Shown here piece by piece: positions 3,770-21,898 of a stretch of DNA of 46,966 bases. The notes beneath the pieces are model-generated. The model saw only the letters and a program-made list of their open reading frames with translations. It was not told where the DNA came from and did no database searches. The stretch comes from Nitrosomonas sp. (GTDB lineage Bacteria > Pseudomonadota > Gammaproteobacteria > Burkholderiales > Nitrosomonadaceae): assembly GCF_024282095.1 (NCBI RefSeq), contig NZ_JAMWZS010000021.1, positions 1 to 46,966 on the forward strand. The letters are read 5' to 3'. Each line of letters begins with the position of its first letter. The stretch's first letter is position 1. The position numbers and the translations under genes were made by a program.

Positions 3770-3838
3770 CCCAGTGCAGCGAGTCAACGAATGCTATGAA
3801 AACATCGCTTTGTTCAAAGGATTATGAGAGCTGATGCT

Positions 3839-6084: not shown

Positions 6085-6712
6085 CGCTAATAAAGAAATT
6101 CTATTGCGCTGGGAGCAAGGCTTGTTCGGTTTTTCTGCTGTGTACACCACGCATGGCTTTATGCCGCTGACTAAAAAAATAATCAAACTGCAACCCGAAT
6201 TATTGTTTCTTGATTATGAATTACCGGGTTTGAAACATCAGCGGTCCATTGCGGAATTGGTAACGCTAAGAAAAGAAACCAGAATTGTGGTATTTGGCCC
6301 GGAATTATCCGATGAGATTGAGTGGAGATTATTTAAGACAGGTATCAAAGGGTGTTGCTTGAGTACGATGCAGCCTGAGCGCATCAAGCGTGTTGTTGAT
6401 GCGATCCTGCAGGGAGAACTGTGGATTCGCCGCACGCTGACCAACCAAATATTGAATGAACTGGTCAAAGTGACTTACGAAAGAAATCGAATTAAGCGAG
6501 TCATTAATGATTCGCTGGAGGATCTCACGCGCCGCGAGTATGAAATTGCCATGCTGGTTCGGCGCGGAGAAAGTAACAAGAAGATTGCGCAGCAACTGGA
6601 CATTACCGAACGAACCGTCAAAGCACACTTAACTGAAATTTTTCGCAAACTGCATGTTTCAGATCGCATCAAACTGGCATTGATTATGAAGGATGCCATC
6701 AAGTCGCTATAG
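6068..6712 (+). CDS. LuxR/NarL-type transcriptional regulator with atypical receiver
   Basis: The 214-residue protein has an N-terminal receiver-like domain and a C-terminal LuxR-type HTH (LTRREYEIAMLVRRGESNKK, then ERTVKAHLTEIFRKLHVSDR, about residues 153-205). A candidate phosphoacceptor aspartate is present (LLFLDYELPG, D49). The acidic pair normally near the N-terminus is missing (MILLASANKE), and the conserved lysine position reads GIKGCCL, so phosphorylation may not work normally. The start is a TTG at 6068, preceded by GAGG at good distance and overlapping the end of the upstream receiver gene by 17 bp. It lies about 670 bp upstream of the polyketide synthase on the same strand and is a candidate regulator of that cluster; no operator supports this yet. 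Confidence 0.78.
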   Translation: MILLASANKEILLRWEQGLFGFSAVYTTHGFMPLTKKIIKLQPELLFLDYELPGLKHQRSIAELVTLRKETRIVVFGPELSDEIEWRLFKTGIKGCCLSTMQPERIKRVVDAILQGELWIRRTLTNQILNELVKVTYERNRIKRVINDSLEDLTRREYEIAMLVRRGESNKKIAQQLDITERTVKAHLTEIFRKLHVSDRIKLALIMKDAIKSL

Positions 6713-7384: not shown

Positions 7385-10300
7385 ATGAGAAAAAAGAAAC
7401 TAAAAATCAGTAATAATGAGGCTTACGAACCGATTGCACTGGTCGGGATTGGTTGTCGCTTCCCAGGAGGATCGCATGATCCGGAAAGCTTCTGGAATTT
7501 GTTGGTTACGGGGAGTGACGCCATTGTGGATATCCCTCCGGAGCGTTGGAATCTACGGCGTTTTTATGATGCCGATCAGAATAAACCCGGAAAAATGTAT
7601 GTCAAACAAGGAGGATTCCTGCAGCAGCGTGTCGATGAATTCGATGCACTATTTTTTGGAATTACGCCACGTGAAGCCGAGTGTATTGATCCACAACAAC
7701 GCTTGTTACTAGAGACCAGCTGGGAAGCCTTGGAAGATGCCGGCATTCCGCATGAGTCGGTGGTCGGTTCAAATACCGGTGTTTTTATTGGGGCATTCAC
7801 CCTGGATCACAAACTGACCCAGATGGGTAAGATGAATCGCGATCTGATCGGTACGCATACCGCGATCGGTTCGACCATGACCATACTGTCCAATCGTATT
7901 TCATATATTCTGGATCTGCATGGTCCCAGCATGAGTGTCGATACCGCTTGTTCTTCTTCGTTGGTCGCATTACATCTGGCCAGTCAGGCAATCTGGAGTG
8001 GTGAATGTAATTTGGCACTGGCGGGCGGTGTCAATGTCATGATGCGTCCGGAATACCCGATTGCCATGTGCAAAGGGGGTTTTCTTGCACCGGACGGACG
8101 CAGCAAAAGTTTCGATGCCGGTGCGAATGGCTATGGCCGTGGCGAAGGCGCGGGAGTGGTTGTGCTGAAGCCTTTATCAGCCGCCTTGAGAGATGGTGAC
8201 TCCATTTATGCCTTGGTGCGAGGCACGGGTGTCAATCAGGATGGCAGGACCAATGGAATTACTGTTCCTAATCCGGTTTCACAAACTGCACTCATTCGTT
8301 CCGTGTGTACCAAGTACGGTGTCGATGCCAGCGATATCAGTTATTTTGAAGCGCACGGTACCGGAACACCTGTGGGCGACCCGCTTGAAGCTAAAGCATT
8401 GGGTGAAGTGATTGATGCAACAACCAAGCGTGCCAAAGCGTGCTTGATGGGTTCTGTCAAAGGCGCTATCGGACACCTGGAAGCTGCTGCCGGTATTGCA
8501 GGGATCATTAAAACATCGCTGTGCTTATCGCATCGCCAGGTACCGCCCCAGGCTAATCTGGAGACGCCGAATCCGAATATTCCTTTTGATGAATTGGGAT
8601 TGCGCTTGCCAATAAAACTGGAATCTCTGACTTCCGCTTCGCAGCAGATTTATGCCGGTGTGAATTCATTCGGATATGGCGGAACAAACGCCCATGTGGT
8701 GCTGGAAAATGCGCCGCCATTGCCCAAATTGCTGCGCGAAGACGATATGCCCGGCACAGTGTACCTGCTGCCATTATCAGCGCGCAGTGAAGCGGCGCTC
8801 ACGGATTTAGTCAAAGCCTGGCTTGCCAAGTTTCCTGCAGATTACCCGGGCGCATTAAAAGATTTGTGTTATTCGGCAGCGTGCCGCCGCGGCCATCATG
8901 ATTATCGATTGGCAATCATGGGGGATTCATGGAAAGCCATGCATGAAAAACTCACCGCGTTTGCAGCAGGGCAACCGGATTCTGGCTGGGTATCCGGTAA
9001 GGCTGACAGCAAGGCATCGTCAAAACCGGTATTCGTGTATACCGGCATGGGGCCGCAATGGTGGGCGATGGGACGGGAATTGTATGAACAGAATGCCATT
9101 TATCGTAAAGCCGTCGAAGCATGCGATGCGATTTTCCGTGATTTATCGGGCTGGTCGATTCTTGACGAGATGTTGGCGGATGAGAAAGATTCAAAAATAA
9201 CCGCGACTGAAATCGCTCAACCTGCTAACTTTATGATTCAAGTTGGATTAACTGCCATGTGGCGTGCTCAGGGTATTGAACCGGGCGCTGTTGTCGGACA
9301 TAGCGTTGGTGAGATCAGTGCCGCCTATGCTGCGGGTGCGCTCAGCTTGGAAGATGCGGTCAAAGTGAGCTATGAGCGCAGCCGCATCCTGAAGAAAGCA
9401 GCCGGTTATGGAAAAATGCTGGCGGTTGGCGTGAGTATGGAAAAATGCATTGAGTTACTGACCGCTTTGACCCAAGACAATGTTTCCATTGCTGCAGTGA
9501 ACGGCCCTTCACTGGTAACTCTCTCAGGCGATGGCGATGCACTGGAAAAGATATCAGCGCATTTGACGCAACAAGGAGAATTCAATCGTTTCCTGCAAGT
9601 TGAAATGGCTTATCACAGCATGTTTCTGGAACATCTCAAGCCGGAGATCAGAACCAGTTTGGCTGATCTGCATCCTGTCATGCCGCTGGTGCCGTTGTAT
9701 TCGACAGTGACCGGCGAGCTGACGGATACCGTGAGCTACGATGCCGAGTACTGGTGCGATAACATTCGTGAGCCGGTGTATTTTGCTCAGGCCATGGCGA
9801 GCCTGTTGCGTGACGGGCATCGTGTTTTTCTCGAAATCGGCCCGCACCCTGTGCTGTCGAGCGCGATCAAGGAGTGTTGTCAGCAGCAAAATATCAAGCC
9901 GCAGACATTTGCTTCATTACGCCGTGAGCAACCTGAGCAGCATACCTTCAATATGGCGCTGGCCGGGCTTTATACCGCGGCTTGTCAAATCGATTGGCAG
10001 CATTTGTATCCCAGTGATTCCGTTTACATCAAATTGCCCACGTATCCTTGGCAACGGGAAACTTATTGGCACGAGGATGAAGATTCGATCACCGATCGCA
10101 CCGGCATACCGTTGCATCCGCTATTGGATCGCCGTTTATCCGGTCCTCGGCCTGTATGGCAAAGTGCGGTGAATCGTCAATTCCTGCCTTTTTTGAATGA
10201 CCATCAAGTGGATGGACTGGTGGTTATGCCGGGTGCGGCTTATGTGGAAGCCTCATTGGCTGCCCATCATCAAGTGACCGGAAATGCCGCGTGTGTCATC

Positions 10301-13300
10301 GAGCAATTACATTTTCATCAGGCATTGGTGTTGAATGATCATCAGAGTGAGCCTTCTATTCATGTTAGTTTTGATCAGCAAAGCGGCCAATATGCTTTTC
10401 ATAGCCATCAGCAGGATACCGCTACGAATTGGAATATGCATGCATCTGCCAGGATCATGTCGGTAACACCAACAGAATCGACCAGTATCGAACGTCACGA
10501 TATTGAACACCGCTGCTCCGAAAAGGTGAATGTCGGCGATTTGTATGCCGAGCTCAAGGAGCGTGGTTTGTTTTATGGCCCTTATTTTCAGACCATTCAG
10601 CAGCTGCAACGCTGCCACGGTGAAGTGTTGGCGCGCATTGAACTGCATGCTGATTTAATCAGTGAAAGTACGGATTATTTACTGCACCCCAGCTTATTGG
10701 ATGGCTGTTTTCAGTCTTTGATCGCGGCAATCAGCGACGATGATAGTTTTTACATGCCGGTTGTCATCAAACGTATCAGCTACCATGCAAAACCGGGCAA
10801 TGCGGTCTGGTGTCACGGCAAGCTCACTCAAGTCAATGAACATTCGATTGAGGGTGATTTAAGGCTATTTGACGATCTGGGCAATCTGCTGGTCGAAGTC
10901 GCTGGTTTACGCTGCCGTGCTTTAACCACGGAAAAGAAAAATCCAATCGAACAATTAGCCGAATGGGCTTATGCATGGCAATGGCAGCAAAAGCCGCTAC
11001 AACCTCAGGGTAAGCGCACAGGTTGCTGGCTGGTGTTCACTGATCACAGCGATATTAGCGAATCCTTATGTCAAACATTGGAAAATGGTGGAAATCAGGT
11101 AATACGCATAGCCATCGATGAGGTGTATCAGCAGGAGTGTGTGCATATGCAACCACTCAATGCCAATGAGCTTGAGTATCTGGAAAAGGTGATACAAAAA
11201 GTCAAGGAAAAATCACTGAGTTGCGTGGGTGTATCTTATTTATGGGGATTATCCACGACTTCTCAGGATGATCCTGTCGGTATCGCGCAAATCAGCGTGG
11301 CGCTTCAAGTCATCCAGTTGCTGGGTAAAGTATTCACCACCCATGCACCGCGGTTGTATATGGTTACCCAGGGTACGCAACCGGTGATGGCTAACAGTGA
11401 TATACAAAACGTCGCACTCACATCGCTGACCGGACTGGCTCGCGTTGCATTCAACGAATATCCGCTGCTGCGCTGCACGCAAGTGGATTTGGATCCGGTC
11501 AATCCGCTGGAGCAGATACGTATGCTGGCGAAAGAACTGGTGTCGGATGATCGGGAAGATGATGTGGCTTTGCGTGGAAACAATCGAATGGTACATCGTT
11601 GGGAACGTTATCGCGTTGAATCTTCGGTCCATGACGCATCGATTTCATACCGCGGTGAAGACGTCGAGGCATTTCAACTCAAATGGAAAAATCATGCGGA
11701 ATTTTGCTTGATGCCGGCGCTCATGCCGCAAGCCGATGAAGTGACCATTGCCGTGGAATGCATCAATTTAACCGGTTACCGATTCTCTGAGGCTGAAGAC
11801 AATACTCCGCGCGGCTACTTTGCGGTGGGCGTCATCGACAAAGTCGGCAGCAACGTGACCGACCGGTGCCCGGGAGACCTGGTGATGGTGGCGACTACCG
11901 GAAACATTGCTTCGCATATTGTCAGCCCGGCTACTAGCGTTTTCTCAGTCGATTATTTGCCGCTTTCTCATGAACAGATCGCTGCGTTGGCAACAACATT
12001 GATTCCTACATATTATGCGTTGAATTATATTGCCCGCGTGGTGCCTGGAGAAGCCGTATTGATTGATGCTGAATTAGGCGCCACGGCTTTAGCGGCACGT
12101 GGTATTACAGATTATTTAGGTGCATCACCCATTTTCTATCATGGTCATGATATCGAGGAACAGGAGGGTGAGCAAAGTGTAGCCTCGGTGCGCGCCTGGA
12201 TTCATGGTGCAAGTACTGCTAAACCTGAAGGATTGGATGGTTTGTTGGCGCCGGATACGCATGAAATTGCTGTCACACAGAGCAATGCTGACAATGTGTC
12301 AGGTCATGCATCCAGTAGCAGCTTTACTCACTTGGATGCGCTGAAACTTGCATTGACCGCGCCAGGATTGTTTGAGCAGTTGTTACAGGTGGTTGCGCGC
12401 TTGCTTGCGACGCATCAGATTACCGGTATCCCTCCAACAAAATCATTCACGTTTGTGGAAGATCTGACACGATTGGCGGATCACACTCAGACTACGCAAG
12501 ACACACACATCTTATCGCTTAAGGATAAAGCGGCAATTGTGGTAACGGATAAGCAAAAACGCCCGGCACTGTTTGACGCACAGGCTGCTTACTTGATTAC
12601 CGGCGGATTCGGTGGTTTTGGTCTGGAAGCGGCAAAATGGATGGCAAAACATGGCGCGAAGAATTTGATTCTAGTCAGTCGACGTGGTGCTGCCGATAGC
12701 GCTGCACAAGCAGTATTGACGATGTTGGCGGGAAATGGCGTGCACGTGTTGTCCATCGCCGCAGATCTTACAGATAAAGCGCAAGTACAAGCATTGTTCG
12801 ATCAGATTGCAACCCAAGGCGCGCCATTAAAAGGTATCTTGCATACGGCTGCCGTTCTGGATGATGCGCCGATTGCGGAACTGAATCCTGAGCGCGTGGC
12901 CCAGGTGATGCGGGCCAAAGCATTGAGCGCCTGGTATTTACATCAATTCACACAGAATCTCTCATTAGATTTCTTGGTATTATTTTCATCGGTTTCCGGG
13001 ATTATCGGCAATGCCCGCCAAGCCAATTATTCTGCCGCCAATGCGTTCCTGGATGCGCTGGCAGCCAAACGCAGATCTGTCGGACTGGCCGGTACCAGCA
13101 TCAACTGGGGTGCCATTGCAACAGGCATGGCGGTGAATAGCGAAGAGGTGAGGAAACATTTGGATCTCATGGGCATGTACATGTTGACCGCCAATCAGGC
13201 GCTGGATTCGTGGGCGCATATGCTGGATGTTGCGCTGCCGCAATATGGTCTGATGAACTGTGACTGGGAAAAGTGGCAGGCATTTGAACCGACGGGGGGC

Positions 13301-13792
13301 AATTCTCCCAGGTTTGCAAGCCTGGTAAAAAGCTCCGGCCAGAAACAACAAGCGTCACTGACTCCAATATGTTTGGAGATCAGTCAATTGCCGGAAGATC
13401 AACGGCGCGCGGCCATGTGCCGTGCGTTAACCGAGCAGATCGCAAGCGTTCTGCGCATACCGGCGGAGAGAATCGATATGGAACAGTCATTAATTCAGAT
13501 GGGGGTCGATTCGCTGATGTCCGCAGAATTACAGGCAGGCATCAATAAAACCTTCGGCGTTAGGATTTCCACGCTGGAATTCATGCGCAGCCCTAATTTG
13601 GGATATTTGGCCGACATGCTCATGGACAAAGCGATTGTATCGGTTGCACCGCCAGCTTCAGAAACGATCATCCAGGAAAATTCAGTGATTGATCGTATGT
13701 CCGAGGCGGATGTTGATCTATTACTCAAGCAGTTGTTGGCACAAGCTGCTGATGTGACGGCAGGAATCAGTAGCGGAACTGCCGGCGCTTAA
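7385..13792 (+). CDS. Type I polyketide synthase, KS-AT-DH-(inactive ER)-KR-ACP
   Basis: A 2135-residue single-module reducing polyketide synthase. The ketosynthase has the full triad: C189 in DTACSSS, H324 in EAHGTGTP, H364 in GHLEAAAG. The acyltransferase has GHSVGE (S640) and H744 in MAYHS, closer to malonyl-type than methylmalonyl-type signatures. The dehydratase has the HxxxGxxxxP motif (H940) and D1106 in HPSLLDG. A structural KR half follows (about 1200-1410). Next is an enoylreductase-like region (about 1415-1720) that lacks the glycine-rich NADPH motif, so it is probably inactive. The ketoreductase has GGFGGFG (1740-1746), LDD (1825-1827, B-type) and Y1882. The ACP carries S2043 in GVDSLMS. 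There is no thioesterase, which fits release by the downstream oxoamine synthase. Ribosome site AGGGAG. Confidence 0.95.
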   Translation: MRKKKLKISNNEAYEPIALVGIGCRFPGGSHDPESFWNLLVTGSDAIVDIPPERWNLRRFYDADQNKPGKMYVKQGGFLQQRVDEFDALFFGITPREAECIDPQQRLLLETSWEALEDAGIPHESVVGSNTGVFIGAFTLDHKLTQMGKMNRDLIGTHTAIGSTMTILSNRISYILDLHGPSMSVDTACSSSLVALHLASQAIWSGECNLALAGGVNVMMRPEYPIAMCKGGFLAPDGRSKSFDAGANGYGRGEGAGVVVLKPLSAALRDGDSIYALVRGTGVNQDGRTNGITVPNPVSQTALIRSVCTKYGVDASDISYFEAHGTGTPVGDPLEAKALGEVIDATTKRAKACLMGSVKGAIGHLEAAAGIAGIIKTSLCLSHRQVPPQANLETPNPNIPFDELGLRLPIKLESLTSASQQIYAGVNSFGYGGTNAHVVLENAPPLPKLLREDDMPGTVYLLPLSARSEAALTDLVKAWLAKFPADYPGALKDLCYSAACRRGHHDYRLAIMGDSWKAMHEKLTAFAAGQPDSGWVSGKADSKASSKPVFVYTGMGPQWWAMGRELYEQNAIYRKAVEACDAIFRDLSGWSILDEMLADEKDSKITATEIAQPANFMIQVGLTAMWRAQGIEPGAVVGHSVGEISAAYAAGALSLEDAVKVSYERSRILKKAAGYGKMLAVGVSMEKCIELLTALTQDNVSIAAVNGPSLVTLSGDGDALEKISAHLTQQGEFNRFLQVEMAYHSMFLEHLKPEIRTSLADLHPVMPLVPLYSTVTGELTDTVSYDAEYWCDNIREPVYFAQAMASLLRDGHRVFLEIGPHPVLSSAIKECCQQQNIKPQTFASLRREQPEQHTFNMALAGLYTAACQIDWQHLYPSDSVYIKLPTYPWQRETYWHEDEDSITDRTGIPLHPLLDRRLSGPRPVWQSAVNRQFLPFLNDHQVDGLVVMPGAAYVEASLAAHHQVTGNAACVIEQLHFHQALVLNDHQSEPSIHVSFDQQSGQYAFHSHQQDTATNWNMHASARIMSVTPTESTSIERHDIEHRCSEKVNVGDLYAELKERGLFYGPYFQTIQQLQRCHGEVLARIELHADLISESTDYLLHPSLLDGCFQSLIAAISDDDSFYMPVVIKRISYHAKPGNAVWCHGKLTQVNEHSIEGDLRLFDDLGNLLVEVAGLRCRALTTEKKNPIEQLAEWAYAWQWQQKPLQPQGKRTGCWLVFTDHSDISESLCQTLENGGNQVIRIAIDEVYQQECVHMQPLNANELEYLEKVIQKVKEKSLSCVGVSYLWGLSTTSQDDPVGIAQISVALQVIQLLGKVFTTHAPRLYMVTQGTQPVMANSDIQNVALTSLTGLARVAFNEYPLLRCTQVDLDPVNPLEQIRMLAKELVSDDREDDVALRGNNRMVHRWERYRVESSVHDASISYRGEDVEAFQLKWKNHAEFCLMPALMPQADEVTIAVECINLTGYRFSEAEDNTPRGYFAVGVIDKVGSNVTDRCPGDLVMVATTGNIASHIVSPATSVFSVDYLPLSHEQIAALATTLIPTYYALNYIARVVPGEAVLIDAELGATALAARGITDYLGASPIFYHGHDIEEQEGEQSVASVRAWIHGASTAKPEGLDGLLAPDTHEIAVTQSNADNVSGHASSSSFTHLDALKLALTAPGLFEQLLQVVARLLATHQITGIPPTKSFTFVEDLTRLADHTQTTQDTHILSLKDKAAIVVTDKQKRPALFDAQAAYLITGGFGGFGLEAAKWMAKHGAKNLILVSRRGAADSAAQAVLTMLAGNGVHVLSIAADLTDKAQVQALFDQIATQGAPLKGILHTAAVLDDAPIAELNPERVAQVMRAKALSAWYLHQFTQNLSLDFLVLFSSVSGIIGNARQANYSAANAFLDALAAKRRSVGLAGTSINWGAIATGMAVNSEEVRKHLDLMGMYMLTANQALDSWAHMLDVALPQYGLMNCDWEKWQAFEPTGGNSPRFASLVKSSGQKQQASLTPICLEISQLPEDQRRAAMCRALTEQIASVLRIPAERIDMEQSLIQMGVDSLMSAELQAGINKTFGVRISTLEFMRSPNLGYLADMLMDKAIVSVAPPASETIIQENSVIDRMSEADVDLLLKQLLAQAADVTAGISSGTAGA

Positions 13793-13799
13793 TCCAATA

Positions 13800-13822
13800 C
13801 CCCACCGGTTGCTCCGGTGGGG
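13800..13822 (+). terminator. Hairpin after the PKS gene
   Basis: A perfect 9-bp GC-rich stem (CCCCACCGG / CCGGTGGGG) with a 5-base loop starts 8 bases after the PKS stop codon. Only three T residues follow directly, so termination may be partial. It could reduce the level of the downstream genes relative to the PKS or stabilise the 3' end of the PKS message. Confidence 0.65.
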
Positions 13823-14268
13823 TTTCCATGAAACTTCCCAGATCAATAGATTCCCTTCTTTATTTCATTGCCGGAGCATAGCAAATCGTTGAAAAACGAT
13901 TCTAGCAGGCCGACTTAGGGAAACTCTGAATAACTGTCATTTCGAGCGCAGCGAGAAATCTATGACATTGATTCACAAAGATTCCTCACTTTGTTCGGAA
14001 TGACAAACATGAATTATTCAGAGTTTCCTTAGAAGTTCAGGTGTTAACTCTGACCTTCCTTTAGCGCTCTCAGGCAGCAATCCGGTAAGCAAATTTTTCA
14101 TTATGGGAATGGGCGGTAGTCATACAAGGGCACGCTGCTGGCGCGGCATTTCTTTACCAAGGTGATTTTTGTCACAGATTTGCTGGCTGATAACACTTAT
14201 TCTGAGCAAGTATCAGTGATTCATCCAAGTATATACAACAACATTGGCTTACAAAGGTTACCACTACT
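13823..14268. other. Intergenic region, PKS / oxoamine synthase
   Basis: This 446-bp non-coding gap splits the cluster. It holds a small hairpin with a 7-bp stem and GAAA loop at 13884-13901, the MITE at 13919-14028, and about 240 bp (14029-14268) without a recognisable gene. The last part probably carries a separate promoter or the untranslated leader of the oxoamine synthase gene. Confidence 0.5.
13919..14028. mobile_element. Non-autonomous IS5-like MITE (110 bp)
   Basis: The element has perfect 15-bp terminal inverted repeats: GGAAACTCTGAATAA at 13919-13933 and its complement at 14014-14028. Both sides carry TTAG (13915-13918 and 14029-14032), a 4-bp target duplication of the YTAR type made by IS5-family elements. 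The termini also resemble the IS5 end as I recall it (GGAAGGTGCGAA...). Inside are two converging copies of a dispersed motif (TGTCATTTCGAGCGCAGCG at 13935 onward, and the related complementary unit ending at 14005). There is no room for a transposase, so it must be mobilised in trans. Confidence 0.82.
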
Positions 14269-15657
14269 ATGAAGAATGAAACAGGTGTGCTGGCGAATAT
14301 GTCACCCGAAGAGAAGCGCGATCTTCTGAAGCAATTGATATCCAAAAAGGAAAATGATCAGAAAGCCGGATCTGATTCCGATTCAGAATCGATTCCTGAT
14401 GCATGGTATCGCTTTGATAAATTCCCCGACTACAACATGCTGATGGAGCAGGCGAAGATATTCAAAACGTTATCGATGGATAATCCCTATTTCAGCCCGC
14501 ATGAAGGTGTGAGCGATCATATTACACGCATCGATGGCAAAAATTTCATCAATTATTCCGGTTATAACTATCTCGGATTATCAGGCCACCCGGAAGTATC
14601 CGCAGCCGCTAAAGCAGCGGTGGATCGGTATGGCACTTCAGTATCCGCCAGCCGGATCGTGTCCGGGGAAATACCGCTGCATCGTGACCTGGAAGCGATA
14701 CTGGCCGAGATTCACGGCACTGAAGATGCATTGGCTTTGGTGAGCGGTTATGCAACCAATGTATCGGTTATCAGCCATTTATTTGGACCCAACGATCTAT
14801 TGATACACGATAGCCTGATTCACAACAGCGTCATCACGGGATGCAAGCTCTCCGGCGCAAGGCGCATGACTTTTCCGCATAACGACTGGGAAGCCCTGGA
14901 TAAGATATTGGAAGAAAACCGCCATGCGTATCAACGTACCCTGATTATCATTGAGGGTGTTTACAGCATGGATGGTGATATTCCCGACTTGCCGCGTTTT
15001 ATAGCAATCAAGCAAAAACACAAGTGCCTGTTGATGGTTGATGAAGCACATGCTGCAGGCGTCATCGGTCCACGCGGATTTGGTTCGCATGATCATTTTG
15101 GCATCGATGCTGCGGATGTGGATATCTGGATGGGCACGTTGAGCAAGGCGTTTGCCAGTTGCGGCGGTTATATCTGCGGTTCACGTGCATTGATAGAAAA
15201 TCTTAGATACAACGCAGCCGGCGCCATATTATTCAGCGTCGGTATCTCGCCGGCTAACACTGCGGCGGCTTTGACCGCTGCGCGTATTTTGCAGCGTGAA
15301 CCCGAACGCGCCGAGCGCTTGCGTGCCCGATCATCTTTGTTTTTGCAGCAAGCGCGGATGCGCGGGCTTGATACAGGCTTGGCCAGCGGCACAGGCGTTG
15401 TTTCGATCATACTGGGTGATTCAGTGCTGTGTCTGAAGCTCGGGCAGAAATTATATCAAGCGGGCATCAATGTTCATCCCATCATGTATCCGGCAGTACC
15501 GGAATCGGCTGCCAGATTGCGCTTTTTCATAACGTGCAATTTATCGGAAGAAGAAGTTGTGCATACCATCGACACGCTCGCGACAGAGTTGCAGCGCTTG
15601 CATGGAAAAGCCGGGCGTGTGATCGCGCATACCGAATCTGGGGCAGTTTCATACTAA
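14269..15657 (+). CDS. PLP-dependent alpha-oxoamine synthase (SPT/KBL/BioF family)
   Basis: The 462-residue protein belongs to the fold-type I enzymes that join an acyl thioester to an amino acid with loss of CO2, giving an alpha-amino ketone. Family hallmarks are the D258-E-A-H261 motif that holds PLP, the Schiff-base lysine K293 in LSKAFASCGG, the HDSLIHNS segment, and the opening YLGLSGHPEV. Compared with BioF (about 385 residues) it has about 75 extra N-terminal residues, beginning with MSPEEKRDLLKQLI, which looks like a short docking helix. Directly downstream of a PKS that lacks a thioesterase, it is expected to take the chain from the ACP. The amino acid (serine, glycine or alanine) cannot be read from the sequence. 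Biotin synthesis is unlikely because no bio genes are nearby. Confidence 0.9.
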   Translation: MKNETGVLANMSPEEKRDLLKQLISKKENDQKAGSDSDSESIPDAWYRFDKFPDYNMLMEQAKIFKTLSMDNPYFSPHEGVSDHITRIDGKNFINYSGYNYLGLSGHPEVSAAAKAAVDRYGTSVSASRIVSGEIPLHRDLEAILAEIHGTEDALALVSGYATNVSVISHLFGPNDLLIHDSLIHNSVITGCKLSGARRMTFPHNDWEALDKILEENRHAYQRTLIIIEGVYSMDGDIPDLPRFIAIKQKHKCLLMVDEAHAAGVIGPRGFGSHDHFGIDAADVDIWMGTLSKAFASCGGYICGSRALIENLRYNAAGAILFSVGISPANTAAALTAARILQREPERAERLRARSSLFLQQARMRGLDTGLASGTGVVSIILGDSVLCLKLGQKLYQAGINVHPIMYPAVPESAARLRFFITCNLSEEEVVHTIDTLATELQRLHGKAGRVIAHTESGAVSY

Positions 15658-15761
15658 TGTTATCAAGGCTGAAAATGGTGATGCTGGTGATCGTCGCCCA
15701 CGGAGCATGGGCAACAGTTGCGTCAGCCACCCCATTAATAGAGAGGATTAGCTCATGTTAA
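15657..15761 (+). CDS. 34-residue exported-type peptide between oxoamine synthase and exporter
   Basis: The ATG at 15657 shares a base with the oxoamine synthase stop (TAATG), and its own TAA overlaps the start of the RND gene (ATGTTAA), so it is coupled at both ends. The product begins MLSRLKMVMLVIVAHGAWAT and looks like a complete signal peptide: positive n-region, hydrophobic core, and VASA as a cleavage box. This would leave a 10-residue tail, TPLIERISSC. It may be a real secreted mini-peptide, a membrane anchor-like accessory, or only a coupling leader that keeps ribosomes moving into the exporter gene. I know no family for it. Confidence 0.5.
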   Translation: MLSRLKMVMLVIVAHGAWATVASATPLIERISSC

Positions 15762-18094
15762 ATCAATATACCCACCAGGTTTTGCGGTTCCGCTGGTTGA
15801 CCGTGCTTGTCAGTGCCGTGTTAATCGCCGTTGCTGGATACGGTATACAGTTCCTGCACTTCAAGAGTGATTACCGGATGTTTTTCAGCGATGATAACCC
15901 GCAACTCATGGCTTTCGAATCGTTGAATAAAACCTACGTTAAGGACGACAATATTCTGATGGTTGTCACACCCGCCAACGGCGATGTGTTTACCAAAGAA
16001 AATCTTGTCATCGCTGAGAAACTGACAAAGCGTCTTTGGCAAACGCCTTATTCGATCCGCGTAGATTCGATTACCAATTTTCAGCACAGCCATGCCACAG
16101 GCGATGATCTTTTTGTGGAAGATCTGGTGAGAAACGCTGATCAACTGACTGTGACGGAAATCGAACAGAGACGTCGCATCGCATTGAACGAACCGCTCTT
16201 GGTAAATCGGCTTATTTCACCCAATTCAAAGGTGATGGGGTTCAATATTGTCGTTCACAGGCCCGGTCTGGATCAAGATATGGAAACCGTGGAAGCCATT
16301 GAATTTACTCGTGGATTAGTGGATGAACTTAAAAGAGATCATGCTGATCTGGATGTACGCCTTACCGGCTCACTCATCATGGACATATCGTTCGCGGAAT
16401 CGTCAAAACAGGATATGAGTACGCTGACGCCTGCCATGCTGACGATCATTTGTATTGCGCTCTGGCTGTTTCTGAAGTCCGCGTGGGGAACACTTGCCAT
16501 CGTCATGATGATGACAATGGCTGTGAGTGCGGCCGTTGGTTTGGCCGGCTGGATGGACATTGCGTTTTCTCCTTCCAGTATTCCGGCGCCGACCATATTG
16601 CTCACCGTGGTTGTCGCTGATGCCGTGCATATCCTGACCAGCTATTACAGCGCGTTGGCGCGCGGTCAAGCACGACAAGAAGCGATGATCGAAAGTATCC
16701 GGATTAATTTCAAAGCGGTTTTCTTTACAAATTTGACCACCGCGGTCGGTTTTCTGTCGATGAATTATAGTGAAGTTCCGCCTTTTCAGGATCTTGGGAA
16801 TATTACTGCCATGGGTGTCGGTGTTGCATTTTTATTGACGATTACCTTCCTGCCGGCAGTGATGATGCTTTTGCCCATGCACCAAGGGCGCGCTGAAATC
16901 AGCGGTAGCAAGACACTGGCGCGATTGGCGCAATTCATCATCGCACATCGCACGGCTACCTTGAGTTCTCTCATCCTGGGAACCATTGTGCTGATTGCCT
17001 GTATTCCTCTGAATACACTGGATGATGAGTATGTTAAGTATTTTGACGATTCCGTAGCCTTCCGCCGCGATACCGATTACACCACGAGTCACCTTACCGG
17101 TGTTTATCGCATCGATTATTCGTTAGGGCGGGAAATCGATGGCGGTATCAGTGATCCTGAATTCTTGCAGCAGGTTGATGCGTTTGTGCAGTGGTACCGG
17201 GAGCAACCGGAAGTGATGCATGTGTATTCCGCTACGGACATTTTGAAACGGCTGAACCGTAATATGCATCAGGATGATCCGGCATGGTACCGCCTGCCTG
17301 ACACACAGGAATTGAGCGCACAGATTCTGCTCATGTACGAAATGTCTCTGCCGTACGGGCTCGATCTCAATGACCGGATCAATGTAGGCAAGTCGGCAAC
17401 GCGGGTGACCGTAACGTTGCATAGCATTTCCAGTCAGCAGGTTATTGATCTCGAAACGCGTGCACAGGCATGGCTGGCGGCAAATACCACAGCCATGAAA
17501 CACAATGATGGCACCGGTCCGACCTTGCTGTTTGCACATATCGGGCAGCGTAACATTACCAGCATGATTGCCGGAGAGCTCGTTGCCATAGGGATTATCT
17601 CGTTGATTCTGATATTCGTGCTGCGCTCGGTCGGCCTGGGGTTGATCAGTTTGATTCCCAATCTGGTTCCTGCGGGAATGGCTTTTGGGTTGTGGGGATT
17701 GATTGTCGGACAAGTAGGGCTTGCCGCTTCGGTCGTTGCGGCAATGACACTGGGGATTCTGGTGGACGACACGGTGCATTTTCTCAGCAAGTACCAGTAT
17801 GCCAGAAAACAACTCAATCTCGAGCCTGAACAGTCCATTCAATATGCGTTTGCTACTGTCGGCAGTGCGTTATGGATTACTTCCGCAGTGCTGATTATGG
17901 GGTTCTCTCTATTCACTTTTTCCAGTTTCAAAATCAATCATGAAATGGGCTTGCTCACCGCTGCGATCTTTGCGTTGGGCTTGTTCGCAGAATTCCTGTT
18001 ACTTCCACCGATTCTACTGGCGCTGGAGTCATGGAAGCGGCGGATAGTTTTACCTTCGAAACCTGTCGTTACTAAATTAGGAGAAATCAAATGA
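15755..18094 (+). CDS. RND-superfamily exporter, MMPL/HpnN type
   Basis: A 779-residue inner-membrane protein with the duplicated RND layout: one N-terminal helix (about residues 12-30), a large periplasmic loop, a bundle of helices (about 220-380), another helix near 400-420, a second periplasmic loop and a final bundle (about 610-760). Motifs ILLTVVVADAVHILTSYY and LGILVDDTVHFLSKYQ mark the two transmembrane halves and resemble the DxxxH segments of MMPL proteins. This branch moves lipids or lipid-like products, for example hopanoids (HpnN) or mycobacterial lipids (MmpL). The start overlaps the small peptide gene and the end overlaps the LolA-like gene (ATGA), so they form an operon. I expect it to export the PKS product. 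Confidence 0.87.
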   Translation: MLNQYTHQVLRFRWLTVLVSAVLIAVAGYGIQFLHFKSDYRMFFSDDNPQLMAFESLNKTYVKDDNILMVVTPANGDVFTKENLVIAEKLTKRLWQTPYSIRVDSITNFQHSHATGDDLFVEDLVRNADQLTVTEIEQRRRIALNEPLLVNRLISPNSKVMGFNIVVHRPGLDQDMETVEAIEFTRGLVDELKRDHADLDVRLTGSLIMDISFAESSKQDMSTLTPAMLTIICIALWLFLKSAWGTLAIVMMMTMAVSAAVGLAGWMDIAFSPSSIPAPTILLTVVVADAVHILTSYYSALARGQARQEAMIESIRINFKAVFFTNLTTAVGFLSMNYSEVPPFQDLGNITAMGVGVAFLLTITFLPAVMMLLPMHQGRAEISGSKTLARLAQFIIAHRTATLSSLILGTIVLIACIPLNTLDDEYVKYFDDSVAFRRDTDYTTSHLTGVYRIDYSLGREIDGGISDPEFLQQVDAFVQWYREQPEVMHVYSATDILKRLNRNMHQDDPAWYRLPDTQELSAQILLMYEMSLPYGLDLNDRINVGKSATRVTVTLHSISSQQVIDLETRAQAWLAANTTAMKHNDGTGPTLLFAHIGQRNITSMIAGELVAIGIISLILIFVLRSVGLGLISLIPNLVPAGMAFGLWGLIVGQVGLAASVVAAMTLGILVDDTVHFLSKYQYARKQLNLEPEQSIQYAFATVGSALWITSAVLIMGFSLFTFSSFKINHEMGLLTAAIFALGLFAEFLLLPPILLALESWKRRIVLPSKPVVTKLGEIK

Positions 18095-18873
18095 AAAAAT
18101 TAACTTACCTGATCTGCCTTTTTTTCAGCATGGCCACTACGCTGTATGCATCCACTGATGAGGAAAAAGGCTATGCAGTCCAGTCGGAAGTCGAGCGCCG
18201 TGACACTGGCTTCGGCGACTCTATCAATGACTCTTTAATGATTTTGCGTAATGCACAGGGCGCAGAAAGTAAGCGGGAGTTTACGTACAAAACGTTGGAA
18301 ATTAAAGGGTCTGGCGACAAGGAACTGGGTGTTTTCCATCGACCTGCAGATGTGAAAGGAACAGCCATATTAACGTTCTCCCATGGACTGAAGCCTGATG
18401 ATCAGTGGCTATATTTACCCGAACTGAAAAGAGTAAAACGTATTTCTTCAGTGAACAAGTCTGGCCCGTTCATGGGCAGTGAATTCGCATACGAAGACAT
18501 CGCTTCATGGGAATTGGAGAAATACACCTATAAATATTTACGTGATGAGGCTGTGGATGGTAACGATAGCTTCGTTATCGAGAATACACCGGCATACGAA
18601 CATTCCGGTTACGTTCGTCAAGTGGAATGGATTGATAAAACCATTTATCAACCCCGCAAAATTGAATTTTATGATCGTAAGAACACGTTGCTTAAGACAC
18701 TGACTTTCCATGATTACAATCAATATTTAGGCCAGTATTGGAGAGCCGGTCGGCTCGAAATGGTCAATCATCAAAACGGTAAGAGCACTACTTTGTTACG
18801 CAACAACTATCGTTTTCGTGTCGGGCTGAGTGACAATGATTTTTCTGAAAACTCACTCAAGAACGTTCAATAA
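18091..18873 (+). CDS. Periplasmic LolA-like (outer membrane lipoprotein-sorting) protein
   Basis: A 260-residue protein with a cleavable signal peptide (MKKLTYLICLFFSMATTLYA). The rest matches the LolA-like family usually annotated outer membrane lipoprotein-sorting protein: LPELKRVKRISSVNKSGPFM, GSEFAYEDI, and the later YDRKNTLLKTLTF and YWRAGRLEMVNHQNGKST segments. Such proteins have an open half-barrel that binds acyl chains and are commonly encoded next to MMPL/RND exporters. The gene overlaps the exporter stop by four bases (ATGA), indicating coupling. Likely role: carry the lipid product across the periplasm. Confidence 0.85.
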   Translation: MKKLTYLICLFFSMATTLYASTDEEKGYAVQSEVERRDTGFGDSINDSLMILRNAQGAESKREFTYKTLEIKGSGDKELGVFHRPADVKGTAILTFSHGLKPDDQWLYLPELKRVKRISSVNKSGPFMGSEFAYEDIASWELEKYTYKYLRDEAVDGNDSFVIENTPAYEHSGYVRQVEWIDKTIYQPRKIEFYDRKNTLLKTLTFHDYNQYLGQYWRAGRLEMVNHQNGKSTTLLRNNYRFRVGLSDNDFSENSLKNVQ

Positions 18874-18997
18874 ACATTGGTTCTTGCTATGTTTTGACTC
18901 AATCGGAGTCAGTAAAGGATTGATCTCAGGAAATAATTTCATGACAATCCAATATTCCTGATGAGTTGCTCATTAACAGAAAAAAGTCATTGCAGTA

Positions 18998-19035
18998 AAT
19001 TTAATCCGGCATTCATCGAGGTGCCGGATTAAATT
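18998..19035 (+). terminator. Strong hairpin between LolA-like and outer-membrane genes
   Basis: A perfect 14-bp inverted repeat (AATTTAATCCGGCA at 18998-19011, complement at 19022-19035) surrounds a 10-base loop. The AT-rich stem base could act as a weak intrinsic terminator, although no long T run follows. It may also be an mRNA-stability element separating expression of the exporter operon from the porin-like gene. Confidence 0.5.
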
Positions 19036-19086
19036 GCCAAGTCATTCATAGAATCATCTAAGGAATTGTTGTTAAGGGTAATTGTC

Positions 19087-20304
19087 ATGCTGTTAAGAGT
19101 AATGCTCGCCATCTTGGGAATGATCGTTGCCGTAACCAATATTCAGGCTGCTGAGTGGTCTGGTTTTGCAGCTATCGATCTTCGCGCGTATGTAAAAGCG
19201 CCAGCATTTCCTGAGCAGAATAATCTTCTTTTTGTGCCATCAGGCGTGGCACAGCCCGAATTTCGTCATGAATGGAACGGGGGGACAGATCGTTTGACCG
19301 TTGTCCCGTTTGCCAGGATTGATGCGATTGACGAGAATCGCACCCATTTTGATATTCGCGAGTTTAACTGGCTGCGTCAGAATCAGAATTGGAGTTTGCG
19401 AGCCGGTGTTGGCAGGGTATTTTGGGGGGTGACTGAGTCACGACACTTGGTCGATATCATCAACCAGGTCGATTTTGTGGAAAATATTAATGGCGAGGAG
19501 AAATTGGGTCAGCCGATGCTGAATTTAAATGTACCCAGTACGTACGGAAATTTTAATTTCATATTGATGCCTTATTTTCGGGATCGCACCTTTCCGGCAA
19601 CGGGGGGAAGGCTTAGGTTTGTACCGCCGGTAGACCAGAATGCCTCGGAATTCAGTGACGCCGGTCGCTGGCATCCGGATTGGGCGATACGCTGGAGCCG
19701 TACTTTCGGTAACGTCGATATTGGTATTGCTCATTTTATGGGCATAGGACGAGAGCCTAGATTGTTACCGCGCTTCGATCATGGTCTGAATGCCGCGCCG
19801 ACGGCCTTGATCCCGGTTTATGATTTGATTCAACAAACCAGTTTGGACGCTCAGGCTTCTCTGGGAAACTGGCTTTTTAAGCTGGAATCCATTACGCGCA
19901 GTGGCCAGGGTAAACGCTTTGCAGCAGTGGTGGCAGGTGTTGAGTACACCCACTATGGTTTGTTGAACAGTGATATCGATCTTGGCCTGTTGGCGGAATA
20001 TCTGTATGACGGCCGTGACAAAGCGGCTCCGCCTACGCCTTTCAACAATGATGTTTATTTTGGTGTGCGTTTGGCCTTTAACGATACGCAGAATTCACAG
20101 ATATTGGCGGGTGTTACCACAGACGTGGAGACGCAGGCTAAGGTCGGCACCATAACGGCTAGCCGCCGCATTGGTGAAAAGTGGAAAATTGAGCTGGAGT
20201 CCCGGTTCTTTTCACACATCGCCCCAGATAGACCCAGCAGCGAGATTCTGACGGGGTACCGGCAGGACGATTATATTCAGCTCCGTATCGCCCGCTATTT
20301 CTAA
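19087..20304 (+). CDS. Outer-membrane beta-barrel protein of unknown family
   Basis: After a signal peptide (MLLRVMLAILGMIVAVTNIQ, cleavage near AA-EW) the 405-residue product is made of alternating strand-like segments. It ends in IARYF, with the C-terminal phenylalanine typical of outer-membrane barrels. Segments such as SLRAGVGRVFWGVTESRHLV and GNWLFKLESITRSGQGKRFA are reminiscent of DUF1302-like or phosphate-selective porin-like proteins. I choose ATG 19087, spaced eight bases from AAGGG; TTG codons at 19066 and 19069 are in frame. It follows the LolA-like gene and could be the outer-membrane exit or receptor of the pathway. Function not established. Confidence 0.72.
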   Translation: MLLRVMLAILGMIVAVTNIQAAEWSGFAAIDLRAYVKAPAFPEQNNLLFVPSGVAQPEFRHEWNGGTDRLTVVPFARIDAIDENRTHFDIREFNWLRQNQNWSLRAGVGRVFWGVTESRHLVDIINQVDFVENINGEEKLGQPMLNLNVPSTYGNFNFILMPYFRDRTFPATGGRLRFVPPVDQNASEFSDAGRWHPDWAIRWSRTFGNVDIGIAHFMGIGREPRLLPRFDHGLNAAPTALIPVYDLIQQTSLDAQASLGNWLFKLESITRSGQGKRFAAVVAGVEYTHYGLLNSDIDLGLLAEYLYDGRDKAAPPTPFNNDVYFGVRLAFNDTQNSQILAGVTTDVETQAKVGTITASRRIGEKWKIELESRFFSHIAPDRPSSEILTGYRQDDYIQLRIARYF

Positions 20305-20332
20305 GCATTTCGCAAGTTACAAAAATCAACCT

Positions 20333-21055
20333 ATGCAAACAAGAGTATTTGACGGCTTTGTACCCGATCAGGTCATGTCGTCAATGTGGCCATCGCCGAC
20401 TTTCCATTTTGAAATTTGCGAAACTTCCAAAGATCAACAGGTACTTCATTTTGCTGAGCGATCGTTGATCGAAGGTGCTAATTTAAAGCGCCAACAGGAT
20501 TTTTGCTCCGGTCGATATTGCGCACATCGGATTCTGGACAAACTGGGGTATCGTGAGGTGCCCGTCTTGTCTGACCCCTATGGTGCGCCATGCTGGCCTG
20601 CTGATATTGTCGGCAGTATCAGCCATAGTGGGGGAATGGCGATGGCCGTTGCTGCTTACCAGCAACATGTCAGGACTTTGGGATTCGACATCCAAGCCTA
20701 TGAGAGGCCTTTTCCTTATGACACGCTGGACATGCTTTTTCGCCCCGAAGAAAAACAGAGCATTCTGTCAATTGCGCCAGAACTCATGGATCTTTACGCT
20801 TATAGTATTTTTTCCGCGAAGGAGAGCGTTTTTAAATGCTGTTACAGCGCATTCGGTTGCTTGCTCGAGTGGTGTGATATTGCTATCACGCTGGACTGGG
20901 TGAAAGGAATTTTTGTTGCCCGCACACCGCAACATCCGATATGTGAGTCCTTCTTTGACAATTCCGGATTAACTGGAAGTATCTTTATCGATAATTCATG
21001 CATTTATACTGGAATCTGGTTGTCGGCGGCACCCTATACTCGATCCAACGGATAA
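20333..21055 (+). CDS. 4'-phosphopantetheinyl transferase, EntD-like
   Basis: A 240-residue Sfp/EntD-type enzyme expected to convert the apo-ACP of the PKS to its holo form by adding phosphopantetheine from CoA. Recognisable parts are FCSGRYCAHRILDKLG, the GSISHSGG strand (usually GSISH/GSLTH), GFDIQ (D119 to Q121) and FSAKESVFKC (K163, E164). The usual GxDxE metal-binding motif has Q121 in place of E, which is unusual, although the KE motif is intact. It begins 28 bp after the outer-membrane gene and probably shares its transcript. The ribosome site is weak. Confidence 0.85.
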   Translation: MQTRVFDGFVPDQVMSSMWPSPTFHFEICETSKDQQVLHFAERSLIEGANLKRQQDFCSGRYCAHRILDKLGYREVPVLSDPYGAPCWPADIVGSISHSGGMAMAVAAYQQHVRTLGFDIQAYERPFPYDTLDMLFRPEEKQSILSIAPELMDLYAYSIFSAKESVFKCCYSAFGCLLEWCDIAITLDWVKGIFVARTPQHPICESFFDNSGLTGSIFIDNSCIYTGIWLSAAPYTRSNG

Positions 21056-21262
21056 TCCTTGTGGTTTCTAGTTTCTATTCGCGTGATTCTAACGTCACTC
21101 AGGGTAAGTGACTATATTTGCTAATAATATTAGCTGTGGCATTTATCACAGCGTACCTGCAGCCGGTGGTGATAAATTTTAGTCGTGCTTTCGATCTGGA
21201 CCCTGTCCGGAAGAACACAGAAAGTAAACAAGCAGTTTATTAATTTTATAAAAGGATTGGAA
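21056..21262. promoter_or_regulatory. Leader region of the secreted-protein gene
   Basis: About 200 bp separate the PPTase from the next gene. It contains AT-rich stretches and a good ribosome site (AAAGGATTGG) before ATG 21263. I cannot place promoter boxes firmly. Confidence 0.3.
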
Positions 21263-21898
21263 ATGAAGAAATTATTATGGATTGCCTTAACAGTTATTCT
21301 GGGTAATGTGCATGTTGCGATGGCTACTCAGGATCACAATCATGGGGGTGCCACAGATAAAGTTGATTTTTCTTTTGCTGGTGATGGTTATTTTTTTAAA
21401 ACTTCCATAGATGTTAATCAGGATGGCACTTTTGCAACTCTTATGAATTTCACCGGTAGAAGTAAAGAGTTAGGCAGAGTATCTGCCAGTGTTCTTACAG
21501 ATATCCGAGTTGAATTGGATGCCAACGGAATACCAAAAAGTTGTGTAACTCCTGATGGCTTTCAAGGGATAGTCGTTGGTCTTGTGAAATCCAAAGGTAT
21601 TATTCAACTGAAAAATGGTGATCAACTTTTTACTGAAGCCACTTCACTATCTTCGTGTCTCAGCATCAGTGAGTGCGTTGATGAACAAGGGAAAGTGAAG
21701 GAAGGATGTGCATTCCAGTCAATAACTGCTGCCAAGATTATTGGTGGTACTGGGAAATTTACTTGTGCATTTGGAGACTCGCAGCACGAACATACTCGCA
21801 CAGTCCTAGCAGTCGACCCGCAAGTAGATGTTTTTGGCAGTGTTTCGAATTTTACAATGCGTGGTACAGTGCATATCCCCAGAAGTTGTAGCAAATAA
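21263..21898 (+). CDS. Secreted protein of unknown function, possible AOC-like barrel
   Basis: The product starts MKKLLWIALTVILGNVHVAM, a clear signal peptide. The upstream in-frame start at 21185 would place this inside the protein, so 21263 is the better start. The mature part (about 190 residues) has an N-terminal HNHGG stretch, six cysteines including ECVDEQGKVKEGC, and IIGGTGKFTCAFGDS, which recalls the GGTGxFxxAxG pattern of allene-oxide-cyclase-like beta barrels. Its base composition is more AT-rich than the PKS genes. It may be the last gene of the cluster or an unrelated neighbour. Confidence 0.6.
   Translation: MKKLLWIALTVILGNVHVAMATQDHNHGGATDKVDFSFAGDGYFFKTSIDVNQDGTFATLMNFTGRSKELGRVSASVLTDIRVELDANGIPKSCVTPDGFQGIVVGLVKSKGIIQLKNGDQLFTEATSLSSCLSISECVDEQGKVKEGCAFQSITAAKIIGGTGKFTCAFGDSQHEHTRTVLAVDPQVDVFGSVSNFTMRGTVHIPRSCSK

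What the first reader, a model, noticed from the sequence alone, without database searches (positions are those of the whole stretch)
7385..21055. PKS plus oxoamine synthase plus lipid-export cluster: candidate new amino-lipid system
One strand carries a single-module reducing PKS without thioesterase, an alpha-oxoamine synthase, an MMPL/RND pump, a LolA-like carrier, an outer-membrane barrel and a PPTase. Seen directly: domain motifs and gene overlaps. Known: oxoamine synthases can release acyl chains as amino ketones (serine palmitoyltransferase, the PigH and Fum8 types), and MMPL/LolA-like pairs move lipids. Inferred: the cell makes a long-chain amino ketone or sphingoid-like lipid and places it in the outer membrane. 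I cannot name a described cluster with this exact set.
Basis: partly seen in the sequence, partly recalled or inferred. Interest (0 to 1): 0.87.

Follow-up and report, generated by a model that had tools for sequence, protein, structure and literature searches.

The report
Ammonia oxidizer's exported amino-lipid gene cluster
A nitrifying bacterium carries an enzyme line that probably builds an unsaturated, amine-ended lipid and a linked set of genes that probably ships it to the cell surface; the enzyme core is a recently described kind, but the built-in exporter and the disabled reduction step look like a new variant.

Summary
Window 7385-21055 encodes, on one strand, a monomodular type I PKS, an alpha-oxoamine synthase (AOS), an MMPL pump, a LolA-like protein, a probable outer-membrane barrel and a PPTase. 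Of 125 family genomes, 12 have this AOS type; all 12 carry MMPL, LolA and barrel beside it, and 11 of 12 have the PKS in the same locus. The core is not unprecedented: PKS+AOS making sphinganines was published in 2025 (PfSgaAB). The window's AOS is 50% identical to a Pseudomonas sga relative but lies in a different clade. MMPL-LolA-barrel is itself a widespread trio, not seen with PKS or AOS in 20 contexts examined. Best reading: an iterative PKS makes a conjugated polyenoyl chain, the AOS releases it as a polyenyl alpha-amino ketone, and the trio carries it to the outer membrane. Amino-ketone release is likely; the polyene chain and outer-membrane destination are inferred; no product is known. 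New variant of a known kind.

The parts
7385..13792 (+). Monomodular type I PKS, KS-AT-DH-(structural KR region)-degenerate ER-KR-ACP, no thioesterase
   Evidence: Pfam domains; active-site motifs of KS, AT, DH, KR, ACP intact
11657..12568 (+). Degenerate enoyl-reductase domain (residues 1425-1728): lacks the NADPH loop and the segment holding the NFRD motif
   Evidence: No GVG[IL]AA and no N[FY][RK]D, against 34 and 36 of 36 PKSs outside Nitrosomonadaceae type A; same loss in 11 of 11 Nitrosomonadaceae rows; no ER Pfam hit at E 0.001 where L034, L048 and L039 give clear ones; AlphaFold model still matches PKS ER folds, CurK 5dp1 first
14269..15657 (+). PLP-dependent alpha-oxoamine synthase (BioF/SPT/Kbl type), 462 aa
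   Evidence: Pfam/NCBIfam; PDB hits AONS/Kbl 8s1y, SPT 3a2b, Kbl 1fc4
15755..18094 (+). MMPL/RND (HAE3-like) inner-membrane transporter, 779 aa
   Evidence: Pfam MMPL 2e-35; TIGR00921 1.5e-54, below its cut-off; distant RND/HpnN and MmpL4/5 structures
18091..18873 (+). LolA_like periplasmic carrier (PF17131), 260 aa
   Evidence: Pfam 1.9e-62; solved homologue 3bk5 3e-87
19066..20304 (+). Probable outer-membrane beta-barrel, 412 aa, no Pfam family
   Evidence: Third gene of the trio; signal-like N-terminus; aromatic last residue in 27 of 28 complete homologues; fold not confirmed
20333..21055 (+). 4'-phosphopantetheinyl transferase
   Evidence: Pfam 4PPT_N 3.2e-24, ACPS 4.8e-11
21185..21898 (+). 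Possible further member: 237-aa signal-peptide-like protein, no Pfam family
   Evidence: 46% homologue downstream of the PPTase on the same strand in L031 (N. oligotropha), 1 of 15 loci searched
5554..6712 (+). Two overlapping response-regulator/LuxR-like genes upstream; possible regulators, link not shown
   Evidence: Weak MadR hit for 5554-6081; GerE and NarL-like hits for 6068-6709

Best explanation
A biosynthesis-plus-export cluster for an unsaturated amino-lipid. The PPTase arms the ACP. The single-module PKS works iteratively (inferred from its one module), reducing and dehydrating each beta-keto group with KR and DH; because its ER domain has lost its catalytic motifs, the chain should keep its double bonds and become a conjugated polyenoyl-ACP (inferred). 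The AOS condenses that acyl-ACP with an amino acid with loss of CO2, freeing it as a 2-amino-3-keto polyene (likely; amino acid unknown, serine the first guess from PfSgaB). MMPL takes the lipid from the inner membrane, the LolA-like protein shields it across the periplasm and the barrel receives or exposes it at the outer membrane (inferred from protein families). Shown here: gene content, conserved linkage, loss of ER motifs, relaxed evolution of ER.
For: Domains. Other PKS motifs intact, ER motifs lost in 11 of 11 rows, against 34 of 36 with GVG[IL]AA and 36 of 36 with N[FY][RK]D in other PKS-AOS enzymes; ER Pfam hits in the Pseudomonas sga relative and in Thiomargarita. ER identity to the window 30-89% against KS 77-98% over 9 relatives, whereas between the Pseudomonas PKS and 7 other sga-type PKSs ER is 60-73% and KS 52-69%; ER dN/dS 0.15-0.19 against KS 0.02-0.04 in 4 pairs. 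PDB neighbours of the AOS include SPT, Kbl and AONS. Co-occurrence and order. PfSgaB, an AOS of this superfamily, makes 3-ketosphinganines from L-serine (PMC12134224 sections 8-9). ER-less iterative PKS RerA makes polyenes to C22 (PMC11563203). RND plus LolA-like genes are the proposed outer-membrane route for aryl polyenes (PMC8253772 passages).
Against: A trans-acting ER could restore saturation, as known for some PKSs (recalled); each of the 12 type A genomes has 2-5 PF13602 matches, none in the cluster, and other enoyl-reductase families were not searched. The retained ER fold under purifying selection (dN/dS well under 1) shows the domain still matters, possibly as a docking site. Three of 12 genomes add an amino-oxidase/phytoene-desaturase-like FAD enzyme that could alter the chain. 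In one genome the PKS lies apart from AOS and exporter. The trio exists widely without PKS/AOS, so its substrate is not fixed, and it shows no significant BLASTP similarity to the aryl-polyene exporter. No product, expression or localisation data; I know of no such Nitrosomonas lipid (recalled).
Confidence: 0.5

Rival explanations
1. Saturated sphingoid/amino ketone: an enoyl reductase acts in trans at the degenerate ER, giving a normal long-chain 3-ketosphinganine-like lipid as in PfSgaAB, then exported.
For: ER fold retained and under purifying selection, as would suit a docking scaffold; PF13602 reductases exist in all 12 genomes; the Pseudomonas sga products are C24-C28 sphinganines.
Against: No reductase gene recognised by Pfam among the 19 window proteins scanned around the cluster, apart from the PKS's own KR; the Thiomargarita relative keeps its own ER motifs, so loss was not needed for the cluster.
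Confidence: 0.27
2. A partly reduced or short-chain product: the PKS uses KR/DH selectively or makes few extensions, and the AOS releases a small amino ketone (signal, antibiotic or pigment precursor); MMPL exports it outside.
For: MMPL proteins also export siderophores (MmpL4/5 structures are distant hits); PLP relatives include CAI-1 synthase; an FMO-like gene next to the PKS in 7 of 12 genomes hints at further oxidation.
Against: A LolA-like carrier and a barrel suit a lipid; the PfSgaAB precedent is very long chain.
Confidence: 0.18
3. Two neighbouring, functionally separate modules: a PKS-AOS lipid pathway and an unrelated MMPL-LolA-barrel hydrophobe exporter that merely sits beside it.
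For: The trio is common without PKS/AOS: a LolA match in 143 of 369 class genomes (window's included), and 0 of 20 fetched contexts with PKS or AOS. TOL_3187/3188 (MMPL and LolA-like domains, then a porin-like protein) rise on n-C28 alkane in Thalassolituus (PMC6304351 passages; homology to this trio not tested).
Against: AOS and trio stay together in 12 of 12 type A family genomes and in Thiomargarita, even where the PKS lies elsewhere; trio trees split the AOS-linked members from the free ones (MMPL 100/99, LolA 96/94).
Confidence: 0.15

Closest known systems
PfSgaAB, PKS-AOS sphingolipid cluster of Pseudomonas fluorescens MYb115 (PMC12134224)
   Same: Monomodular PKS next to an AOS; AOS 50% identical to that of the sga relative L048 (P. 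putida), whose PKS start matches the published sgaA primer 22 of 22.
   Different: Compared with L048: ER motifs and ER Pfam hits lost, KS only 44% and AT 39% identical, AOS in another clade (100/98). Exporter trio and PPTase linked; the paper's main text names no exporter. No SgaC-like SDR found beside it.
MMPL-LolA_like-barrel trio of Gammaproteobacteria
   Same: Same three genes in the same order; LolA up to 63% identical over nearly full length.
   Different: No PKS or AOS in the 20 contexts fetched; of two upstream neighbours scanned, one is a TetR regulator and one had no hit; substrate unknown.
Aryl polyene (APE) clusters, ApeL/ApeM/ApeN export (PMC8253772, passages)
   Same: Acyl-chain pathway joined to an RND pump and a LolA-like carrier; predicted polyene for the outer membrane.
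   Different: APE uses separate type II enzymes and an aryl starter, with no AOS; no significant BLASTP similarity of MMPL to ApeM (E 0.089) or LolA to ApeL (E 9.2).
Canonical SPT sphingolipid genes aasR-acpR-spt, as in Nitrosomonas eutropha C91 (PMC9386255, passages)
   Same: AOS-family enzyme making an amino ketone, there from a specialised carrier protein.
   Different: Here the chain should come from a PKS; the AOS scores 206-293 bits on SPT models with cut-offs of 500-670.
RerA iterative polyene PKS of Rhodococcus (PMC11563203, part 1 of 2 read)
   Same: Single PKS with KR and DH and no ER, needing a PPTase.
   Different: Enediyne-type KS, tandem ACPs, partner thioesterase; no AOS.

Membership tests
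PKS-AOS sphingolipid cluster (PfSgaAB kind) | Monomodular type I PKS next to an AOS | tested here: met
   same locus in 11 of 12 type A family genomes
PKS-AOS sphingolipid cluster (PfSgaAB kind) | AOS in the clade of the Pseudomonas sga relative | tested here: not met
   61-row AOS tree puts it with Thiomargarita, a Flavobacteriales row and mostly cyanobacterial rows, across a 100/98 split from the L048 row
PKS-AOS sphingolipid cluster (PfSgaAB kind) | Intact ER, as in the sga relative L048, giving saturated sphinganine | tested here: not met
   ER motifs absent where L048 has them; a trans ER is not excluded
PKS-AOS sphingolipid cluster (PfSgaAB kind) | L-serine-specific SPT activity | not testable with these tools
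   Needs an enzyme assay
PKS-AOS sphingolipid cluster (PfSgaAB kind) | SgaC-like KDS reductase (SDR) in the cluster | tested here: not met
   No stand-alone SDR among the 19 window proteins scanned between 1835 and 30210; rest of the genome not searched
MMPL-LolA_like-barrel trio | Three genes in that order with detectable homology | tested here: met
   17 of 20 LolA contexts show MMPL and 16 of 20 the barrel with profiles from this cluster; lower bounds because of ORF filtering; the 20 were taken from the best LolA matches
Aryl polyene cluster | Discrete type II KS/KR/DH set | tested here: not met
   Type I multidomain PKS
Aryl polyene cluster | ApeM/ApeL-type exporter | tested here: not met
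   No significant pairwise BLASTP similarity; same broad families by annotation only
Canonical serine palmitoyltransferase | NCBIfam SPT equivalog cut-off | tested here: not met
   292.7 against 640 bits, 249.9 against 500, 206.3 against 670
Alpha-oxoamine synthase superfamily | PLP enzyme with conserved Lys, Asp/His and C-terminal Arg | tested here: met
   K293, D258, H261, R418 invariant in 14 relatives and aligned with SPT 3a2b and Kbl 1fc4; residue roles recalled

The most novel reading that the evidence does not exclude
Ammonia-oxidising bacteria make a hitherto undescribed lipid class, a conjugated polyenyl alpha-amino ketone (a 'polyene sphingoid'), by an iterative PKS that lost its ER, and install it in the outer membrane through a dedicated MMPL-LolA-barrel route.
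Probability: 0.38. Interest if true: 0.78.

Novelty: new variant of a known kind. Interest (0 to 1): 0.6.

Why it matters
The 2025 paper on PfSgaAB calls itself, to its authors' knowledge, the first PKS cluster shown to make sphingolipids, and its main text names no exporter. This variant ties such a pathway to a candidate outer-membrane export machine, in nitrifiers and a giant sulfur bacterium. It offers a candidate substrate for a widespread transport trio of unknown role and a testable case of lipid diversification by loss of one PKS domain.

Tried and rejected
Fumonisin/Fum8, PigH and CqsA analogies: kept only as AOS relatives. Simple BioF/Kbl housekeeping gene: rejected, below the BioF and glycine C-acetyltransferase cut-offs and beside a PKS. 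swf sponge PKS clusters (PMC3908369, passages): rejected, reductase/sulfotransferase partners. Aryl polyene membership: rejected. Structure of the barrel: model too poor for a fold search, so none was run on it. Amino-acid specificity from active-site residues: not attempted, no reliable rule at hand. AT substrate from the AYHS motif: ambiguous, not claimed. No remnant of the FAD gene was found in the window by tblastn. TOL_3187/3188 homology to the trio: not tested, sequence not held. Literature: the listings of searches showed no paper that I could identify as describing this cluster in Nitrosomonas; PMC9765116 (passages) reports no NRPS or NRPS-PKS hybrids in sludge Nitrosomonas. The 6101 SgaAB homologues of PMC12134224 are in a supplement that I did not open (no such look-ups allowed), so a listing there is possible.

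Full report
What is there. The window (contig G000:C70) carries on the + strand a PKS (7385-13792), an AOS (14269-15657), an MMPL transporter (15755-18094), a LolA_like protein (18091-18873), a 412-aa probable barrel (19066-20304) and a PPTase (20333-21055). Spacings are 476, 97, -4, 192 and 28 bp.

How often it recurs. Of 125 family genomes, 16 have an AOS at E <= 1e-60: 12 with 70-100% identity (type A, window included) and 4 with 51-54% (type B). All 12 type A genomes have MMPL, LolA and barrel beside the AOS, one barrel being cut by a contig end. The PKS is in the same locus in 11 of 12 (in one on the opposite strand); in G112 it lies on another contig. Independent searches agree: all 12 have a LolA at 67% or more and 11 of 12 a KS-AT match at 67% or more; in the twelfth, G070, only the C-terminal half of the PKS precedes the contig end. 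Of the other 113 genomes, one 76%-complete genome (G039) has close LolA and PKS but no AOS match, and 10 have only a LolA of 54% or less. A PPTase of the window's kind follows in 8 of 12; L032 has a different PPTase there.

The two parts are each known. My ORF script found a PKS somewhere in the fetched stretch in 39 of 80; 56 of 80 have at least 4 kb downstream of the AOS; the MMPL profile hit only 2 of 80, N. oligotropha L038 and Candidatus Thiomargarita nelsonii L039. So AOS with PKS is common and AOS with this exporter is rare in that set. Conversely the LolA-like protein has a match in 143 of 369 class genomes, window's included, and in 20 contexts taken from the best matches MMPL was seen in 17, the barrel in 16 and PKS or AOS in none (ORF filtering makes the first two lower bounds).

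Link to the described system. PMC12134224 (abstract, passages, sections 8, 9 and 15) shows that PfSgaA (iterative PKS) and PfSgaB (AOS with serine palmitoyltransferase activity) make C24-C28 sphinganines, and reports 6101 homologous clusters. A P. putida locus (L048) matches the published sgaA primer exactly at its PKS start and with 4 mismatches at its end. The window AOS is 50% identical to its AOS. In a 61-row tree (ORFs of 420-540 aa only, so long or fused AOS were dropped) the window AOS groups with Thiomargarita (99/96), then with a Flavobacteriales row (90/75) and mostly cyanobacterial rows, across a 100/98 split from Pseudomonas, Bordetella and N. europaea type B rows. In four cyanobacterial loci (L040, L041, L043, L049) a small carrier-protein-like ORF or domain precedes or is fused to the AOS, and L041, L043 and L049 have ligase-like ORFs upstream (read by eye, not tested).

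The degenerate ER. Pfam finds no ER in the window PKS, although a type B PKS (L034), the sga relative L048 and Thiomargarita give clear ADH_zinc_N hits. L034 also has a methyltransferase domain; L048 shows none at E 0.001, so that is not a constant difference. Alignment shows the window's ER region is present but has lost the NADPH loop and a segment of roughly 12 residues holding the N-F-R-D motif in 11 of 11 Nitrosomonadaceae rows that cover it (the PKS of G066 is cut before it). In 38 PKS rows (window plus 37 from named genomes), both Nitrosomonadaceae type A rows lack both motifs; of the other 36, 34 have GVG[IL]AA (exceptions L064, L092) and 36 have N[FY][RK]D. ER is the least conserved domain among type A enzymes and has dN/dS 0.15-0.19 against 0.02-0.04 for KS in 4 pairs; a fifth pair was saturated. 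A model of the domain (pLDDT 70.8, 17 sequences) still matches PKS ER structures best, with modest TM-scores of about 0.6. The catalytic motifs of KS, AT, DH, KR and ACP are intact where covered (in L027 the ACP motif reads X). Because Thiomargarita shares the gene order and keeps its ER, the loss most simply fell on the Nitrosomonadaceae side.

Exporter history. In unrooted trees of MMPL (30 rows) and LolA (29 rows), the Nitrosomonas and Thiomargarita copies separate from the free trio copies (100/99 and 96/94; the MMPL bootstrap had not fully settled; G112 was not included). This fits one recruitment carried with the AOS, though rooting was not tested.

Tailoring genes. An FMO-like gene sits next to the PKS in 7 of 12 type A genomes (72-100% identity to the G034 copy) and has no match at E <= 1e-40 in the window's genome. 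One search counts stops inside the match in G035 and G050; their position was not settled, and the G035 frame is open for 459 aa. An amino-oxidase-family FAD gene lies between PKS and AOS in 3 of 12, with no trace in the window. Its likeness to phytoene desaturase and retinol saturase is my recollection.

Mechanism and literature. Precedents are RerA, an ER-less iterative PKS that makes polyenes (PMC11563203, part 1 of 2 read), and the proposed RND/LolA-like export of aryl polyenes (PMC8253772, passages). From these and the anatomy I infer polyenoyl-ACP, amino-ketone release and outer-membrane delivery. Against it: a trans-acting ER is possible, the amino acid is unknown, the barrel fold is unconfirmed, the exporter is not detectably similar to the aryl-polyene one by pairwise BLASTP, and no product is known.

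Verdict. Observation confirmed; interpretation partly supported. The PKS-AOS idea is already described; the linked exporter and the conserved loss of ER motifs make this a new variant of a known kind.

Noticed in passing
L025:14061-14749, L026:14247-14938, L027:138-826: The PPTase gene is split between two frames at a run of 9 A in three Nitrosomonas genomes; L028 has 8 A there and one frame, the window no run. Phase variation, slippage or sequencing error.
   Followed up: partly
L034-L037, L084 (N. europaea): A second, sga-like PKS plus AOS in 4 of 125 family genomes; in L034 (the one scanned) it has MT and ER and is followed by Poly_export, ABC-2 permease, ABC ATPase and a weak GNVR protein: another PKS-AOS cluster with its own putative export set.
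   Followed up: partly
L057, L062, L065, L069, L076-L078, L087, L098, L100 and others: Many planctomycete (and some other) AOS lie in open frames of about 1,130-1,210 aa, suggesting a fusion with an uncharacterised N-terminal part.
   Followed up: no
L040, L041, L043, L049: Cyanobacterial AOS relatives next to carrier-protein-like, ligase-like (L041, L043, L049) and SDR-like (L040, L043) ORFs: possible PKS-free sphingoid pathways (by eye).
   Followed up: no
G075:C1:3102433-3102903: A short piece 78% identical to the type A KS N-terminus in a genome with no AOS match, perhaps a relic of loss.
   Followed up: no
L039:4382-19519: Thiomargarita nelsonii carries a second, broken copy of the barrel gene downstream, and the N-terminal part of its PKS is in a separate, truncated frame.
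   Followed up: partly
one search list: A different PKS of about 1,540-1,640 aa (35-38% identical over KS-AT) is widespread in the family, mainly among the 43 of 59 matching genomes that are neither type A nor type B.
   Followed up: no
window 3824-5512: 562-aa protein with signal-like N-terminus and membrane-like stretches, no Pfam match over its cut-off, upstream of the regulators.
   Followed up: no
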